Shown piece after piece: positions 20,477 to 52,520 of a DNA stretch of 64,000 nucleotides (positions are counted from its first letter, which is position 1; every line of letters starts with the position of its first letter). The notes below the pieces were generated by a model. It did no database searches. It saw only the letters and a program-made list of their open reading frames with translations, and was not told the origin of the DNA. Source of the stretch: Apus apus (lineage: Eukaryota; Chordata; Aves; Apodiformes; Apodidae); contig NC_067282.1 in assembly GCF_020740795.1 (NCBI RefSeq), positions 173,568,274 to 173,632,273 of the forward strand. Direction: 5' to 3'. A program made the translations under genes and the position numbers.

Positions 20477-21571
20477 TAAAAGAAGAAAAAGGCTAGATAC
20501 CCTATATAGCCTGTAGCTATGCAGTCTACATAAGACAGGCTCAGATCTTAGTTTTGAAATTCTGTGAGACCACAGGCTAATTAATTTGAGCAATGAACTG
20601 CACTCTAGGATAGTTTACCAAAAAACTCTCAGGAGAAAGACTGCAAGGCTGAATTTCTCCTTGTGCTCCCCATTGAGAGTGTGTAACCCATTTCAAAGGC
20701 TGAGCATAGTGCTACTGTCATAAGAAGGAACACTCCTTGCTGCATCACAGATGGGGGAGTAAAAGGCAGCTTGTTGCAAACTGAGATTTTACACAACTTT
20801 GAGATAGCAATAATTTGGGATTTCCCATTAGGTAAATTGCATTATTAGATTGTATGGTATTTGTAGGGTATTGATCATCAGTCAGCTACCGGAGTGATTT
20901 AACAAAAGTTGTAATTAAATAGCAATTTAGTTAATGATTCAAGAAGGGCAAGGTTTACACAAGTCTTACAACAGCGTTTCTTAAAGCAAATTACACACAC
21001 ACAAGCACACACACATTCACATAAATACAGAGGTTAACCTACGATTTAGTTTTTCTCTTTTTTAAATTGTAATGAGCTATTGGCATCAAATTATTTCAAA
21101 CTTTGTGAAATCTAATTATAATTAATTTCTCTCTGTCACGACCGGATTCCAGGGGGGCTACTGGCTGTCAGGATGTTTCCGTGACTTCCCCCCCACCCCC
21201 TCAGTTTGGAGGGGTTGTTGAATAAGACCGAGGGTCACACGTGGCGTTTGCCTCTCACAGAGGAAGGGCCGCTGCGGGACTGTATTTTAGCGGTAGTTAG
21301 AATGCACCCCCAGCACGCTCACAAATTGCTACTGAGGCCAATGTTTAGTTTACGAATTAACTGGTTTAATAAAGGTTAACACAAACTGAGTGATGAAGTT
21401 TCGGGAAAATGTACAAATGGCAAACGGCTGCCAGGGATATATCAGGGAAGCAATGTGTCCTTTAGGGAGGTCATGCAAAAAGTGCTGTGCCCGTAAGGCG
21501 TTCTCTCCGAGAGAGGGTTGTGGATTAAAGGAGAGGGAGGGAGGAGCTGACCCCGGCAGGACAGTTAGAGA

Positions 21572-21598
21572 GTGTGTCTGTCTGTGTGTGTGTGTGTT
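21572..21598 (+). repeat. Short TG/TCTG microsatellite
   Basis: A TGTC/TG-type dinucleotide run inside the CpG-rich block, with about six uninterrupted TG units at its right side. Confidence 0.75.
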
Positions 21599-21858
21599 TA
21601 CCCTTCAGTAGCGTGTGGCTCCTGGGATGCGACTTCTTTTCCAGCTGGGAGGGCTCGGCAGCAGGTCTGATGGGGGGGCGGCTTCCCAGTAACAGGGGCC
21701 ACCCCCCAGCAGCGGGCGGGCAGGCAGCAGGCGGACCGGGCAGGCTCCAGTCCCGGGGCAGAGCGGCAGGCGGACCGGGCTGGCAGCTACGGCAGGATCT
21801 CGAAATCCGTGGTTTCGGGGGCAGCCCCTCGCGGCTCGGCAGCGGCGGCAGCAGTTTG

Positions 21859-21872
21859 GTTTCCCCGGTAAC
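21859..21872 (+). promoter_or_regulatory. Imperfect RFX X-box-like motif
   Basis: GTTTCC-CC-GGTAAC fits the RFX X-box pattern GTNRCC(N0-3)RGYAAC except for one base in the left half-site. It lies in the CpG-rich body of the candidate LTR. It gains some weight from the perfect copy about 440 bases downstream. Confidence 0.3.
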
Positions 21873-22300
21873 CGGCAGCAAAACGGGGGAGGGGGCTCCG
21901 GCCCCGGCCCCGACGGCTGCGGGCAGGACCCGGTGCTCCAGGGGACAGAACCCCGGCACCCTCACCGCTACGGCTCAGGCTGGATCCCAGGGCAGGCAGG
22001 CAGGCCGGTTAGCAGGCCCGGCAGAGCCCCAGCGCCAGGCTCCGCAGCAGGGGGGTGTCCCACACAAGAAGCGTCCGAGCAGCCTTGGTCCCACCTGCTA
22101 AACTCTCTGCCTTTTGATACCCCCGTGACCCACCTGTCCAGTCAGTGTCACTGTCCAGAGCCAATGAGCATCCATGAGCCCCAAGATAAGGCAGTAACTA
22201 GCAGGGGCAATGCATGACTTGTTGCCCATCCTTCCTGCCTTGTAACACACCTGTTGTTTTGCTTTCGTTTGTCCTTGAGCAGTAGGCCTGGTTTTGGTCT

Positions 22301-22314
22301 GTTACCTGGGTAAC
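22301..22314 (+). promoter_or_regulatory. Perfect RFX X-box-type palindrome
   Basis: GTTACC-TG-GGTAAC matches the RFX-family X-box consensus exactly, with both half-sites intact and a 2-base spacer. RFX factors drive ciliary and spermatogenic genes. An inverted repeat with 8-bp arms (AGTCAGCA / TGCTGACT) follows directly at 22315-22339. Whether it is bound is unknown. Confidence 0.5.
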
Positions 22315-22482
22315 AGTCAGCAGAAGGCCTTTGCTGACTTAAAAGGCATTTTGGTCAGACTTATGTGGGGAAGAAGGACTGTTTCCCACACTTTCTTTTC
22401 TTCTTCATCATCATCATAGAGTGCCTAAATGAATAATTGTCTCAAAACAACTGCCCTGACAAAATGGACATTGTGCTTGGGT

Positions 22483-22688
22483 GGGGTCCTCGTTTGATAA
22501 GCCACTTGGACTCTGTTCACACAAAGAGAGACCCTCATTTGATAACCACTCTGATAAACTGGGCCCTGGTCTCTCAAGAAGACCCCCTCCTTCGGTGGTC
22601 ATCCCAATAAGCTGGACACTGTCCTTGCAAAGGGAGCCCCTCCTTTGGTGGCCACCATGATAGTCAGGACACTGTCCTTACTTGATAA
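22483..22688 (+). repeat. Four degenerate ~50-bp tandem units
   Basis: Units start with GGGTCCTCGTTTGATAA, GACCCTCATTTGATAA, GACCCCCTCCTTCGGTGG and GAGCCCCTCCTTTGGTGG, at about 22483, 22530, 22581 and 22634. Units 3 and 4 are the most alike and share GGACACTGTCCTT. This spacing is typical of U3 enhancer repeats. Confidence 0.6.
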
Positions 22689-23282: not shown

Positions 23283-23795
23283 CATAGAATCATAGAATGT
23301 TTGGGGTTGGAAGTGACCTCTAGAGATCATCTAGTCCACCCCCCTTGCCCAAAGCAGGACCACCTAGGGCAGGCCACACAGGAATGTGTCCAGATGGGTT
23401 TTGAAAATCTCCAGAGGAGACTCCACAAGCTCTCGGGTATCCTGTTCCAGTTTTCAATCCACCTCATAGTTCTATCATCTATGATTCCTTGAGTTTTCCT
23501 GTGAGGATGTTATGGGAAACAGTATCAAAAGCCTTACTGAAGTAAAGGAATATGACATCCACTGCTCTCCCTTCATCTGCCCATTTGATCATGGCTTTGT
23601 AGAAGGATATCAGATTAGTCAAGCAAGATTTCCTCTTAGTAAATGCATGCTGGTTACTCCTCATCGCCTTCTTTTCTTCCATGTGGTTAGAGATGGCCTT
23701 CAGAATGTGCTGCTCCATCACCTTTCCAGGATTGGAATCACCACCTTCAGACTTGTAAAAGACCTGTCTTTCCTTGACAAATACAACCTTCATGA
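23283..23795 (-). mobile_element. CR1 LINE fragment, minus strand, 3' end joined to RT core
   Basis: The left edge carries two CATAGAAT units followed by the typical CR1 3' segment (to about 23475). The remainder is minus-strand reverse transcriptase sequence. A 104-codon frame at 23479-23793 contains KVMEQ, KSCLTNLI and FSKAFDTVSHNIL motifs. In an intact CR1 these parts are well over 1 kb apart, so the region between is deleted, or two fragments are abutted near 23478. A TCTATGATTC at the junction slightly favours two separate CR1 ends. It is not coding-competent. Confidence 0.88.
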
Positions 23796-23921
23796 AAACT
23801 TCACAAACAACAGGTCAAATGTCCCTCAACTCCAACTTTTCAACCTTCTAATTTTGAAATTGAACCCAGAAAGTTTGATCAGAATCAGAGGGACAGGAGC
23901 TTCTCAGTGCTTCAAATACGT

Positions 23922-45586: not shown

Positions 45587-46956
45587 CAGAATCACAGAAT
45601 CATTACAGTTGGAAAAGACCTCTAAGACGACCAAGTCCAACAGTCCGCCCAGAAGGAACAAAGAAAAAAACACAATAAAACAAACACACAAAAAAACCCC
45701 ACCAAACAAACAGCAAGACAACAACAACCACCATGCCCACTAGAGCATATCCTGCAGTGCCATGTCTACATCTTTTTAAAATACTTCTAGGGGCAGTGAT
45801 TCAACCATCTCCCTGGGCAGCCTATTCCAGTTCCTGACTACTCTTTGGTAATGAAATTCTTCCTAATATCTAGCCTAAACCTCCCCTGACACAACCTGAG
45901 GCCATTTAATCTTGTCCTATTCTTATTCACTTGGGAGAAGAGGCCAAAAACCACCTCAGTACAACCTCCTTTTCAGGTAATTGCAGAGAGCAATGAGGTC
46001 TCCTCTCAGCCTACTTTGCTCCAAACTAAACAATCCCAGTTTCCTCAGCTTCTCCTGATAGTACTTGTTCTCTAGACCCCTTCACCAGCTTGGTTGCTCT
46101 TCTCTGGACTTGCTCCAGCAACTCAATGTCCTTCTTGTAGCAAGGGGCCCAGAACTGAACACAGTACTTGAGCTGCAGCCTCACTAAAGCAGAGTACAGG
46201 AGGACAATCACCTCCCTACTCCTGGTGGCCACAGTATTCCTGATGCAGGGGCCAGAATGCTGTTGGCCTGCCTCCTTGGCTGCCTGGGCACACTGTTGGC
46301 TCATGTTTAGCTGGGTCTCCACCAGAAGCATCCCTAAGTCCTTTTTGTGCTGGGCAGCTTTCCAGCCACTCTTCTCCAAGCCTGTAGTGTTGCCTGGGGT
46401 GGTGACTGAAGTGGAGGACCAAGCACTTGGTCTTTTGAACCTCATACAGTTGGCCTTGACCCATTGATCTAACCTGTCCAAGTCCCTCTACAGAGCCTTC
46501 CTACCCTCAAGCAGGTCAACACTCCTCCTGAATTTGGTGTCATCTGCAAGCTTACTAAGGAAGAACTCAATCCCCTCATCTAGATAATTGTTAAAGATAC
46601 TGAGTAAGACTGGGCCCAAAACTGAGCTCTGAGGAACACCACCTGTGACCAGCCACCAGCTGGATTTCACTCCATTCACTACAACTCTCTGGGCCTGGCC
46701 ATCCAGCCAGATTTTCACAGTGAAGAGTACACCTGTCTATTCCATGATCCATCAGCTTTTCTTGGAGAATGCTGTGGGATTGCTGTGCTTTACTAAAGTC
46801 CAGATAGACAATGACCACAGCCTTTCCCTCATTCACCAAGTGGGTCACCAAGTCATAGGAGGAAATCAGGTTGGTCAAGCATGACCTGCCTTTCCTGAAC
46901 CCATGCTGGCTGGGGCCTGATGCCCTGGCTGCCCTGCATTTGCCATGTGAGTGCAC
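45587..46956 (-). mobile_element. Long CR1 LINE copy, minus strand
   Basis: The left edge reads CAGAATCACAGAATCATTACAG, a CR1 terminus in reverse. About 1.37 kb follow, covering the 3' region and the second half of ORF2. Minus-strand frames carry, from the 5' side, FRKGRSCLTNLISSY and VYLDFSKA (46591-46956), the catalytic-type ADDTK near 46560 (with L for the usual F), and then a C-terminal ORF2 stretch ([47 protein letters not shown]) at 46026-46481. Frameshifts separate these pieces. An A/C-rich low-complexity insertion at about 45660-45730 interrupts the 3' region. It is 5'-truncated within RT, as most CR1 copies are. It lies about 380 bases beyond the PHF7-like gene's poly(A) signal. Confidence 0.93.
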
Positions 46957-47336
46957 TCGATGTACCTATGAAAACATTACTTTGCCTTGCATAGTTACTC
47001 CAGTATACTATCTAATTTCACTAGAATTGTTCTAAAATATAGGGAAATGCCATATTGGCATCCAGTGGTAGCTTTCCAACCAACATTTGAATGCTTCTGC
47101 GATACCATAAACTACATCTCCGCTAGAATATATCAATACCAGCAAGATCTCTTAGGTGCATTGAATTAAACATAATTTAGGAAAAAAAAGCAGAGCTCTA
47201 CCTTATAGCTCATTAGTGAGGAAACTCTTCTGCGTGTGAAAAGAACCACAATCATTATGAAACTCTTGATATCTATGTGTCCTATCTAGAGAGACATCTT
47301 CATGTCACAAATACAATGCAGAGGTTAACAGTCAAC

Positions 47337-47342
47337 TTTAAT
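47337..47342 (-). terminator. Poly(A) signal ATTAAA for the PHF7-like gene
   Basis: The minus strand reads ATTAAA 47 bases after the stop codon, in the context GACAATTAAAGTTGAC. ATTAAA is the commonest variant of the vertebrate polyadenylation signal. It implies a very short 3' untranslated region of roughly 65-75 bases. Confidence 0.65.
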
Positions 47343-47389
47343 TGTCCTGGTGGAGCGGGATCAGGACCGGCACTTTGGGACAGCACACG

Positions 47390-50300
47390 TCAGGGTCTGC
47401 GTTGTCTTGCCTGGCTGTAGGGGTGATTTCGGGCCCGACGCTGTGAACGGGAGTGGTCTCGCATCTGCATGGGCCCAGGGCAGCTGGGCCTGCTGGTCTC
47501 AGGGGCCACGGAGTTGTAGGATGTCCCCAGTGTCACCTGGTTTGGGGTGATGGCACCGCTGATCTTCAAGGTCACACTGGAGGCTGTAAGAGGACATAAG
47601 GAGGAGGTCAAGGTCACAGCCCCCCAGGCCCAGAGTAGGACAGGCCAGAGCTAGGACCCCAGCACTCATGGAGCAGAGAGGCTCTGCCAAGCCCACCCTG
47701 GGCACCCACCCAGGGGGCACTTGGGTGCTTTGCCTTTTACCAGTGCCCAGGTCAGCACAGCAATCACACTCCCAGCTGGTTGAGCTTTTTCTCAGGTGGG
47801 AGCAGCCTCTGTGGGTGCCCTCAGCAGCACAGGAGCAGCACAGGAGCAGTTGCCAAAGCCTGAGGAAGCAAAAGGTTGGTGGCTCTGTGGACAAAGTGAC
47901 TGCAGCATGGGATTGTCTGGCAGAGCTCCTATTCTCAGTCCTTCTGCTTTGAGCCTTTGGTGAGACAGAGTTGCCATGTAGAGCCCTGGGGTGCAGCTTT
48001 GGCAACTTACCCCTCTTCCTCCACCTGTTCCCTGCCTCCTGGACAAAGGCACTCCCTAGCATCACAGCACCTGTGCCTCTCATATAGTTCTTGATAGGCA
48101 CCATAATCTTCCCATGATGGTCCTCTTTTGGTGAAGAAAATGAAAATTGATGAGCCCCTGCTGCTCCAGCATGAGGCAGATACAGAGCGTCCCTGCTCCT
48201 CCCCCGCTATCCTGTTTCCAAGTCCTCAGTCAAACTGAAGCCCAGACTCAGGGGACAGGGGAGGTCCAGGACTGCTGTGACAATCCCTGGCACAGCACAG
48301 TAATTGTACCCTCCTGACTTGTGAGATAGGAAGAAAAAAACCCAACCTCCTGGGGATTTGAATTCCCATGGTGAGCATTTCCATTGAAAAATTATACTGA
48401 TTTTGACAGTGTAGGCAGCAGAAGCCATAGTAGCCAGCATGGATAGCCTGTTTCTGGATGCAGTCCCTGTGGAACCAGGCATGCTTGCATGCTGGGCACA
48501 CCATGGTTCTGTAGGACTTTCTGTCTTCCACCAGGTCCAGGCAGATGAGGCATGTGGTGTTCTTCTCTGGAGCCACCTCCACTGCCTGCTCTGGCCGGTG
48601 CTCCCAGCAGAAGGACCTGGGGGAAAGAGGAAAGGGTTGGGTGAGATGAGAAGTGCTGAGTCCTTCCCAGGTGATGGGGAGCAGGAAGAGGAGGTGTGAA
48701 AGAGACCCAGACCCAGGGCTCTGGCTCTGCCTGTGACTGACTGCTAGGAAGCATCACTACAGGTTCCTTTCTTTTTTTGGCTGATGCTGGAGGGAAGGGG
48801 ACCGAATACTATGAGCCTCACCTGTGAGGGTCAGCCCTTACCTGTAGAGTCCAAAGAACTGGGTCACACATTCACCCTCCTCAGCGCAGGGGAGATGGAA
48901 GCTGCGGTCACAGCCCATCTCGCAGCAGGTGATGGTGGCCCCACTCTCACCACAGACAAAGCAATGCTGGAAAGAGTACAGCAGCACCCATTATCAGCAG
49001 CCTCAGGGCCTCCACAGCCAGTCCCACACCTCCACACAGGGCGCAAGATGTGGCCATTGCTGGGTCACACCGTGCAGATCTGCCTGACAGAGGAGGGCTC
49101 TTGTGCTGGAGCCTCTGTGAAGGTGCTGGGAACAAGACTTCTGTCCAGAGCTGGTTGGAGAGCCAATATTTTATAAACATGAGACAATATTCTATAAACA
49201 TCTGAGAGAAGTCTTTTGGTCTCATGTCCTCACCAGGAGAAGATTATGGAGCAGATCATCCTGAGTGCCATAATGCAGCACGTGCAGAACAAGTGGGTAA
49301 TCAGGCCCAGTCAGCATGAATTCATGAAAAGCAGTTCCTGCTTCTAAAACCTAATTTCCTTCTATGACAAGGTGACCCATTTAGTGAATGAGGGAAAAAT
49401 TATGGATGTTGTTTACTGGAGTTCAGTAAAGCTTTCAACACTCTTTCTTACAGCATTTTCCTAGAGAAACTGGCTACATATGGCCTAGACCAGTGTACTC
49501 TTTGCTGGGTAAAAAACTGGCTGGATGGTTGGGCTCCAAGGGTTGTGGTGAACTGAGTTAAATACAGCTGGAGGCCCATCAAGATTGGTGTTACCCAGGG
49601 CTCAGTGTTGGGGCCAGGTCTGTTTAGTATCTTTATCAATGATCTGGACAATGCAGTCGAGTGGACCCTCAGTAAGTTTGCAGATGATACTAAGTTGGGA
49701 GGGAATGTTGATCTGCTGGAGGGTAGGAAGGCTCTGTAGAGGAACCTGGACAGGTTGGATCAATGGGCTGAGGCCAGGTGTATGAGGTTCAACAAGGCTA
49801 AGTGCCAGGTCCTGCACTTGGGTCACAACAACCCCACACAATGATACAGGCTTGGGAAACTGGCTGGAAAGCTGCCAAGAGGAAAAGGATCTATGGGTGT
49901 TGATTGACAGATGGCTGAATATGAGCTAGCGTATGCCCAGGTAGCCTAGAAGGCCATCCTGGCATTTATCAGAAATAGTGTGGCCAGCAGGACTAGGGAA
50001 GAGACTATCCCCCCCTGTACTCAGCACTAGTGAGGCTGCACATCAAGTACTGTGTTCAGTTCTGGGCTCCTCACTTTAAGAAAAACATCAAGGTGCTGGA
50101 GTGAGTACAGAGAAGAGTAACATAGCTGGTGAAGGGTCTGGAGATAAAATCTTATGAGAAGTGTTTAAGGAACCAAGGTCATTCAGTCTAGAGAAAAGAA
50201 GGCTGAGGGGAGAGCTTATTGTTCTCTACAACTACCTGAAAGGAAGCTGCAGTGAGGTGGGGGATGGTCTCTTCTCCCAAGTAACACGCAATAGGAAACG

Positions 50301-51249
50301 ATGACCTCAAGGTGTTACAGGGAAGGTTTAGATTAGGTATTAGAAGATAGTTCTTCACTGAAAGGGATATTAAATGCTGGAATACGCTGCCCAGGGAGAT
50401 GGCTGAATGACCATCCCTGGAGGTGTTTAAAATACATGTAGTTGCAGGGCTTACAAATATGGTATAACACTCAACTCCGTAGAGCTAGGTTAACGCTTGG
50501 ACTTGACAGTCTTAAAGGTCTTTTCCAACTAGAGTGATTATGTGATTCTGTGGCTGGGATTTCTTTCCTGGGGTCTGGGCTAAGTTCCCACAAACCTCTC
50601 CTGGCACAAATCTCCCTGTTCTTGTCAGGTCCTTACCTTCTGTGCTGCCTGTTTGATTGCATATCTAATATCCTCAAGGCAAACTCCATCGTTATGCCAT
50701 TGCTGAAAAATCCCATTGCCAAAATACTGCAGAAGAGAAAAAACAACAGGTTGATGATGACAGCATGTCAGGGATTGCCTGTCAGAAAGCTGCAGGTAGC
50801 CCTAGGGTAACTCACCAGGCAAAAGGAGTGTGCACAGATCCCGCCATTCTGCAGTTTGGGCCCACAGATGTCTGGGTCAGCCCCTGCCCGGTGACACAGC
50901 ATGCATTCTGGAGAGGAGAGAGCAAATGCCACCAGAAATGAGAGGCTCTGTGGGCCTGGGGGAAGACTACCCTAGGGATTGTCCTCTATCCCTGCCCAGC
51001 TGGCTGAGGGATTGGGCTGGAGGCCTTGGAGAAGAGGGACCATTGCAGACATAGGGGTCCCGGCAGGTGCCCCTTGCCCAGTCTGGGCCCTGCTTGCTGA
51101 CAAAAAGAACGGGCCCTGCCCCAGGGTGTTTGGGGCACTTTGGCCTTCCCCTCCACTGCTCTCAGCCCCATGCTGAATGCCCCCACAGCCTCTCTGCTAG
51201 GCTGTGGGAAGAACACTTTGGTCTCACCTTGCTCCATGCTAGCAGACAT
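47390..51249 (-). CDS. PHF7-like: PHF7-like PHD/RING zinc-finger protein, 8 coding exons
   Basis: Coding exons, 5' to 3' on the minus strand: 51249-51228, 50907-50816, 50726-50637, 48966-48842, 48616-48347, 48124-48011, 47859-47741, 47583-47390. All introns are GT-AG and the total is 1026 bp, a 341-residue protein ending in TGA. The first ATG has a good context (CACCATG). Residues 9-37 (CMLC...HSFC) form a C2HC knuckle. With 70-116 (CFVC, CCEMGC, HLPC, CWEH) they make an extended PHD finger. Residues 132-180 (CLIC, CPAC, HRDC, CLHC) are a C4HC3 RING/PHD-like finger. Residues 219-272 ([21 protein letters not shown]) are a third PHD-like finger. The tail (319-341) is Arg-rich. This is the PHF7/G2E3 architecture without a HECT domain. 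PHF7 is a nuclear histone reader and E3 ubiquitin ligase of spermatids; the same role here is inference. No stop, frameshift or lost ligand is seen. The weakest point is the exon 5 donor (AG-GTTGGG). Confidence 0.92.
49235..50552 (+). mobile_element. CR1 LINE in intron 3 of the PHF7-like gene, antisense to it
   Basis: About 1.3 kb of plus-strand CR1. It begins in the RT domain (KVMEQ-like, then [16 protein letters not shown]), includes an intact FADDTKLGG catalytic motif near 49675-49700, and continues through the ORF2 C-terminus to the 3' tail ending GTGATTATGTGATTCTG. Several frameshifts and stops make it inactive. It occupies most of the 1670-base intron between the PHF7-like exons at 50726-50637 and 48966-48842; without it that intron would be about 350 bases. 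It covers nearly the same ORF2 segment as the copy at 45.6-47.0 kb, in opposite orientation. Confidence 0.93.
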
Positions 51250-52520
51250 GGTGCACGTCACTCGTGAACACTGGGAGAGTCTCCATTGCAGCAGTGCTGG
51301 AGTGTCTCCACTGGTGACCCTGAGGGAGAAGTGGCATGTGGGTTTGCTTGTAGCTCCAGCCCAGAACCCCGAGATGTGAAGTTCCCCTGCTCCCTCAGCA
51401 GCCCCTGTCCCTCCCCTGCGCTCTCCTCACCTCACCACATCACTTTGACATGGGCCTGAGCCCACTGTCCCTTTGTTTGTGGCTTGGCTCTCTGTGTCTC
51501 AATGGCCACTATGAAATCAGCACCCATGCGCCCCTGGCATGGGCAGGGACCTCAACCATCTGCTACCCATAGTGACACAGCCACCACCTCATAGGGGTGG
51601 GTGTGAAGGAAAGAGATGGGGCCCTGAACCCTTGGCACCCACATAATCCACACAGGGGTGGATGCTCCTGCAGCAAGTGCCGAGTCAAATGCCAGGTCTC
51701 CCCAGGGCAGCTGTCAAGGGTGACACTGCTTGCTGAAAGCTGCTGCAGGGCTCCAGCCCTGACCCGGGGCAACCTCTGCTCCTGCCTCAGCATGGGGAGC
51801 ACTGCCCACATGGCAGGAAGGTGATCTTTCCTCTCTGTGCTGCACCTGGAAGGCAGCATCAGCAGGACTGCCTCCAGTTCTGGGCTCCCCAGTCCAGGGG
51901 ACAGAAGTGACCTTCAAGCCTAACCTGAGCTCTCACATCCCATCCACTCAGATGTTGGTCAGTGGTTGGTGCCTTCTTCAGCTCCTACTTCTAGAAAGTG
52001 TCCCCAGCCACCTTCCAATCCAAACTTTGATGCTTAGGTTTTCCTTCTCACCAGGCTTTCTGCAATGCCATTCTGCCTTCTGATGCTATGGCATTAATGA
52101 GCTCCATTAGCTGGATGCTGACAGAGGTGAATGCTGCCAGAGAACATGCTCCCCAGCTCCCAGTGTGGCTTTGCATGACCACAGTTCTTTGACCAGCTCT
52201 GTTTGACCTCCATTGCTCAAGCCAGTGCCTCAGAGCTCTCAACACATTCCCTCTGAAGAGCTCTAACTGTTGTGGCCATGTCTCCACCTCATGCCTTCCC
52301 AGTCACAGCAGTCAAGAACAGAAGGACAGAGTGCTGCCTCAAAGGTCTCTTTTAGACTCTTCTTTCCTTCCTCATTGTCTCCGTGTCAGCTGAAAAGCCC
52401 GTAAGGTCTCCCAGATTCCCTTGCCTTCCTCAGAGAGGACAGCTGCTCCCTACTTTAGTAAATCAATGCACTTTTCTTGAGATGTTCAAGTGTAAGGCAG
52501 CTGACAGGCACAGGGTTGGC
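51250..52520 (-). promoter_or_regulatory. GC-richer 5' flank of the PHF7-like gene
   Basis: This stretch has the same raised GC as the gene and drops to AT-rich sequence near 52.5 kb. It should hold the promoter and any 5' untranslated exon. Directly upstream of the ATG the minus strand reads CTCTCCCAG (51279-51271), a fair 3' splice site, so the first coding exon may begin at 51270 and an upstream non-coding exon may exist. A CRE half-site (TGACGT on the minus strand, 51260-51255) lies a few bases before the ATG. No TATA box is obvious. Open frames here (for example 51563-51917 minus) have no recognisable domain and look like GC-rich noise. Confidence 0.4.

What the first reader, a model, noticed from the sequence alone, without database searches (positions are those of the whole stretch)
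47337..51249. Intact eight-exon PHF7-like gene alone in an AT-rich desert
All eight coding exons join in phase with GT-AG borders to a 341-residue protein with every expected zinc ligand. There is no disabling change. Because introns are present it arose by DNA-level duplication or is the original locus, not by retroposition. Established knowledge: PHF7 acts in male germ cells, and PHF7-like copies are multiplied in the zebra finch genome. Inference: this may be a lineage-specific, testis-expressed paralogue.
Basis: partly seen in the sequence, partly recalled or inferred. Interest (0 to 1): 0.75.

Follow-up and report, generated by a model that had tools for sequence, protein, structure and literature searches.

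The report
Intact swift PHF7-like gene, intron lost
A bird gene that looks like the sperm-chromatin regulator PHF7 is complete and apparently maintained by selection; it seems to be an old shared copy rather than a new one, and one of its introns has vanished exactly at its borders.

Summary
On the minus strand, eight exons (51249-47390) join to 1026 bp and 341 residues with GT-AG borders and no stop or frameshift. Five other proteins recover the borders they span. The nearest solved structure is human PHF7.

The genome is almost certainly Apus apus: contig C36 has the length recorded for an Apus protein. No other match on contig C1 was listed (a lower bound).

Two inferences change. It does not look like a recent lineage-specific paralogue: Chaetura has a 95% identical protein, and the gene falls in a set of 23 rows, all Neoaves by recalled classification (87/88). 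And one short ancestral intron is gone to the base: exon 5 (270 bp) equals the 163+107-bp exon pair of intact paralogues.

Domain dN/dS against paralogues is 0.31-0.33 by counting; a codon model over four copies gives 0.52. Oddly, exon 3, and less clearly exon 5b, differ between copies more than introns do, yet codon-model dN/dS stays below 1. Testis expression and ligase activity are inferred, not shown.

The parts
51228..51249 (-). coding exon 1 (ATG; MSASMEQ)
   Evidence: its donor recovered with P0004 and L011
50816..50907 (-). coding exon 2, first part of extended PHD (C9, C12, C32, H34, C37)
50637..50726 (-). coding exon 3, variable stretch of extended PHD (residues 39-68); differs between copies more than its flanking introns
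49160..50551 (+). CR1-like insertion in intron 3 (element type judged by eye)
   Evidence: coordinates of 8 of 9 dispersed copies continue across it; L017 has no match on both sides; empty site seen in L009, L010, L011
48842..48966 (-). coding exon 4, second part of extended PHD
48347..48616 (-). coding exon 5, RING; fusion of ancestral exons 5a (48616-48454) and 5b (48453-48347)
   Evidence: 270 = 163+107 in L009, L010, L011; homology to 9 of 9 dispersed copies breaks at 48454 or 48455
48453..48454 (-). point of precise intron loss (CIQ|KQA, phase 0)
48011..48124 (-). coding exon 6, start of third zinc module (C220, C225); acceptor AAAAG
47741..47859 (-). coding exon 7, rest of third zinc module (C245, C248, H254, C257, C269, C272)
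47390..47583 (-). coding exon 8, Ser/Arg-rich tail and stop
   Evidence: acceptor with P0003, P0004, L011
47337..47342 (-). ATTAAA polyA-like hexamer
   Evidence: motif only
47284..51955 (-). outer limits of sequence shared with one or more dispersed copies (includes about 0.7 kb upstream)
   Evidence: 47284 with L011, 51955 with L017

Best explanation
This is a functional, solitary PHF7-like E3 ubiquitin ligase gene of the common swift, the orthologue of a Chaetura gene and a member of an old subfamily found across Neoaves. Shown here: intact reading frame, homology to PHF7 over all three zinc modules, dN/dS below 1 against paralogues, separation from the other swift copies older than theirs from each other, and exact loss of one ancestral intron. 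Inferred from named relatives: the protein reads histone H3 with its PHD modules, recruits a UBE2D-type E2 with its RING and ubiquitinates histones in male germ cells before histone removal. The intron was most likely removed by recombination of the locus with a spliced cDNA copy, since only that intron left, to the base, and the other introns stayed.
For: Gene model. 42% identity over 276 aligned residues to human PHF7 8jwj, 225 bits, with ligands kept as I assign them. Pfam PF13771 at 52.2 bits against a cut-off of 29.1. The model of the Chaetura orthologue has 8jwj (PHF7-UBE2D2) as first Foldseek hit, E 5.2e-23. dN/dS in domains 0.31, 0.31, 0.33 against three intact paralogues, upper bounds 0.43-0.46. 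Chaetura differs at 12 of 264 residues, none a ligand. Window+Chaetura 100/99; set of 23 rows 87/88. Intron at the lost site in 15 of 16 other loci modelled, including a G2E3-like gene; the 16th is too decayed to tell. The many chicken co-orthologues are reported with relative testis expression of 50% or more (PMC6609395, passages).
Against: No RNA evidence. Two weak-looking splice signals. The NCBI model P0060 of Chaetura lacks exons 6 and 7, which would break the third zinc module. The codon model over exons 2-7 of four copies gives 0.52, and dN/dS among the other three copies is 0.45-0.60, so constraint is moderate. dN/dS to the Chaetura orthologue could not be computed because no Chaetura DNA was available. 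The predicted model has mean pLDDT 73, a third module below 50 in part, and rmsd 12.9 to 8jwj over the whole length. In the larger quick tree the subfamily rows were not resolved as one group. An exact genomic deletion is not excluded for the intron.
Confidence: 0.72

Rival explanations
1. Recently silenced copy: the frame is still open but the gene is no longer expressed or correctly spliced (weak exon 5 donor and exon 6 acceptor, CR1-like insertion in intron 3).
For: Weak-looking signals; insertion absent from paralogues; six of nine dispersed copies are decayed; Chaetura model P0060 lacks exons 6-7.
Against: No stop or frameshift in Apus, and a collinear Chaetura protein with 12 of 264 changes and none at ligands; GTTGG- or GTTGT-type donors are shared with intact paralogues.
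Confidence: 0.15
2. Lineage-specific swift duplicate.
For: Only Chaetura proteins reach 95% among the 120 listed of 662; other listed rows reach at most 80%, and that over part of the query.
Against: dS to the three intact Apus paralogues is 0.66-0.76, larger than among those three, 0.45-0.51; groups with proteins of many neoavian orders.
Confidence: 0.07
3. The intron was removed by an exact genomic deletion, or by gene conversion from another already intron-less copy, not by cDNA recombination.
For: The intron is short (84, 85 and 79 bp in three intact paralogues); row P0016, without the subfamily motif but inside its set, hints at exchange between copies.
Against: Exact to the base with the frame kept and no scar; no copy shown to be intron-less among 16 other loci modelled (15 have it, one unclear).
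Confidence: 0.3

Closest known systems
PHF7 (human/mouse; PDB 8jwj, 8jwu, 8jws, 1weq)
   Same: Extended PHD, RING and PHD-like module in the same order, paired Cys/His kept
   Different: 42% identity; third RING pair CxxC instead of CC; the last 59 residues of the tail are not aligned
Avian PHF7-like expansion (chicken 63, zebra finch 38, turkey 17, duck 6 copies; PMC6609395 passages)
   Same: Same family; same exon plan as three intact Apus copies apart from one intron; dispersed and decayed copies present
   Different: No other match listed on its contig; RING motif CQNQY (CQN group); one ancestral intron missing
G2E3
   Same: A G2E3-like gene of this genome (L048; the name is recalled, not from a call) shares the PHD/RING part and an intron at the site lost here
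   Different: No HECT domain found in the window protein; G2E3 has one (PMC12794477 passage)

Membership tests
PHF7 / avian PHF7-like | Homology across extended PHD, RING and PHD-like modules | tested here: met
   phmmer to 8jwj over residues 6-282, 225 bits
PHF7 / avian PHF7-like | Zinc ligands of the three modules | tested here: met
   29 of 38 human Cys/His kept; ligand set assigned by spacing, one RING position shifted
PHF7 / avian PHF7-like | No HECT domain (unlike G2E3) | tested here: met
   Pfam scan lists PF13771, PF13832 and two RING models below cut-off only
PHF7 / avian PHF7-like | Nine-coding-exon plan of the intact Apus copies | tested here: not met
   Eight exons; 5a and 5b fused. 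A trait of the gene, not one that defines the protein family
PHF7 / avian PHF7-like | Ubiquitin ligase activity and H3K4me binding | not testable with these tools
   inferred from PHF7 (PMC7141194 passages)
PHF7 / avian PHF7-like | Testis expression | not testable with these tools
   reported for chicken copies (PMC6609395 passages)
Processed retrogene | All introns absent | tested here: not met
   Retained introns homologous to paralogues
Lineage-specific paralogue | Closest relatives within the same genome | tested here: not met

The most novel reading that the evidence does not exclude
A Neoaves-wide PHF7-like subfamily is marked by one shared, base-exact intron loss made by recombination with a spliced cDNA, and cDNA or interlocus exchange keeps reshaping this family: introns are held alike while exon 3 diverges about twice as fast and exon 5b also runs ahead. 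The family would be a live record of RNA-templated gene editing in the bird male germ line.
Probability: 0.2. Interest if true: 0.6.

Novelty: new member of a known kind. Interest (0 to 1): 0.36.

Why it matters
It turns one gene of a poorly sorted bird family into a candidate orthologue group that can be followed across orders, with a rare genomic change (an intron loss) as a possible marker. It also raises a testable puzzle: in this family some exons differ between copies more than the introns beside them.

Tried and rejected
Rejected: processed retrogene (introns retained); other PHF7 pieces in the window (none below E 0.01 outside the gene); tRNA or Rfam features (none reported). Not settled: a mobile unit with shared edges. 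The copies share roughly the same stretch; the repeat search showed only short repeats, but I made no targeted test of the ends. The structure of Chaetura P0002 without an alignment was useless (pLDDT 35.6).

Simple positive selection on exons 3 and 5b: codon-model dN/dS is 0.82 and 0.40, and below 1 in all eight exons run (exon 1 not run), so the excess over introns is left unexplained. Intron read-through test: 149 homologues, 27 CQN rows with 0 read-throughs, 118 others with 12, 4 without the motif; one-sided Fisher p 0.076. Rows are not independent (several per gene or species), so only suggestive.

Rows dropped: one search left out P0005, P0018, P0060 of 121 proteins and added five Apus sequences; in that quick tree (rooted on the distant G2E3-like row) the CQN rows formed an open comb, not one group. 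One search used 24 CQN rows and 40 others of 149 homologues, plus three Apus paralogues and the window protein. There three suboscine CQN rows fell outside the set, one non-CQN row (P0016) inside; the bootstrap had not settled and the root is a midpoint. Loci L050 and L051 were not modelled.

No paper on a PHF7 intron loss in birds was seen in the first 10 listed of 51 and of 56; listings only.

Full report
Observation. The minus-strand model has exons 51249-51228, 50907-50816, 50726-50637, 48966-48842, 48616-48347, 48124-48011, 47859-47741 and 47583-47390. Together they give 1026 bp and 341 residues. An aligner I wrote reproduces it from the window's own protein, which is circular. Of six other proteins, five (Chaetura, Gymnogyps, Harpia, Egretta and Apus copy L011) give no stop or frameshift. 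All five agree on the borders from the exon 2 donor to the exon 7 acceptor, three on the exon 7-8 junction, two on the exon 1-2 junction. The sixth, an annotated model with retained introns, gave one stop and three frameshifts.

Where it is. The window is G000:C1:173568274-173632273 of a 1.10-Gb genome. Contig C36 has 77,839,815 bases, the contig length listed for the Apus apus protein P0093. P0093 pairs with the copy at C36:74.4 Mb with support 100, at 91% identity over 307 columns, the P0093 model keeping extra sequence. I infer Apus apus. The protein search of this genome gave 47 exon-level matches, a lower bound; those on C1 are all this gene. Other copies lie on C3, C4, C10, C36, C5, C17, C9 and C26, with a G2E3-like gene on C6.

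What it encodes. Pfam PF13771 passes its cut-off. Human PHF7 8jwj matches residues 6-282 with 225 bits. Of 38 human Cys/His aligned, 29 are kept; the ligand set, which I assigned by spacing, is complete apart from one shifted RING position. The model of the Chaetura orthologue (66-row alignment, mean pLDDT 73, part of the third module below 50) finds PHF7-UBE2D2 first (E 5.2e-23, TM 0.66, rmsd 12.9).

Age and selection. Of 662 proteins in the first search (120 listed), the best is Chaetura pelagica (95% over 77% of the query); the next two by score are at 73%, and partial ones reach 80%. In a careful tree of 68 rows, window and Chaetura join with 100/99. They fall in a set of 23 rows (87/88) from swifts, hawks and eagles, condor, cormorants, gannet, egret, cuckoo, turaco, bustards, potoo, owl, parrot, woodpecker and penguin. 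The nine galliform, waterfowl and ratite rows of the tree lie outside it. That all 23 are Neoaves is recalled classification. The bootstrap had not settled, the root is a midpoint, and the quick 123-row tree left these rows unresolved. By counting, dN/dS in the domains is 0.31-0.33 against three intact Apus copies; the tail gives 0.52-1.02. A codon model over exons 2-7 of the four copies gives 0.52.

Intron loss. Intact copies L009, L010, L011 have 163- and 107-bp exons where the window has one of 270 bp. Their intron there is 84, 85 and 79 bp. Of 16 other loci modelled, 15 have an intron at this place, some with shifted donors in decayed copies; L013 is too decayed to tell. DNA homology to all nine dispersed copies breaks at 48454 or 48455. 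The other introns are homologous, so the gene is not a retrocopy. Whether other birds share the loss is open. No CQN-group model reads through such an intron (0 of 27; 12 of 118 others; p 0.076). The Morphnus model P0124 appears by eye to read through introns elsewhere but has no insert at this point.

Exons against introns. In all six pairs of the four intact Apus copies, non-synonymous divergence of exon 3 exceeds that of its flanking introns (0.33-0.41 against 0.15-0.18, p at most 4.3e-4). Exon 5b exceeds its neighbours in five of six pairs (p 0.021-0.051) and falls below them in the sixth. Exon 8 differs clearly in two of six; exons 4 and 5a do not. The six pairs are not independent. Against decayed copies the same pattern holds: exon 3 in 5 of 5 measured and exon 5b in 6 of 6 exceed the pooled introns. 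Against positive selection: codon-model dN/dS is below 1 in each of the eight exons run; by counting, synonymous sites also differ more than introns in most exons. Gene conversion of introns, constraint on introns, or exchange of exons could each explain this. Exon 3 has length differences, so its alignment is less sure; exon 5b has none.

Function. For PHF7: binding of H3K4me3/me2, H2A ubiquitination and histone removal in spermatids (PMC7141194, passages). Many chicken copies are testis-biased (PMC6609395, passages). PHF7 is expanded in turkey and chicken (PMC10360393, passages; Fouchecourt 2022 seen only as cited there). Sixty copies in chicken, 16 on Z (PMC12794477, passage). The canary paper failed to find the zebra finch expansion (PMC4373106, passage). 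None of this tests the present gene.

Noticed in passing
window 21000-22500: CpG-island-like stretch (GC 0.56-0.60, CpG o/e 0.49-0.65), a possible promoter of an unseen gene; one ORF there (21529-22098) has no Pfam match.
   Followed up: partly
window 23482-23814 (-) and 46594-46965 (-): Reverse-transcriptase fragments (RVT_1, below Pfam cut-off).
   Followed up: partly
L049-L055 (contigs C5, C17, C9): A separate PHF7-like group: near-identical copies about 4.5 kb apart on C5, and further copies near the starts of contigs C17 and C9.
   Followed up: partly
L009, L010, L011 and window exons 3 and 5b: These exons diverge more than introns between copies; unexplained.
   Followed up: partly
window 48617-48841: Intron 4 is 225 bp here and 69-83 bp in the three intact Apus copies.
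   Followed up: no
window 49160-49201: A 21-bp unit twice in tandem at the left edge of the intron 3 insertion.
   Followed up: no
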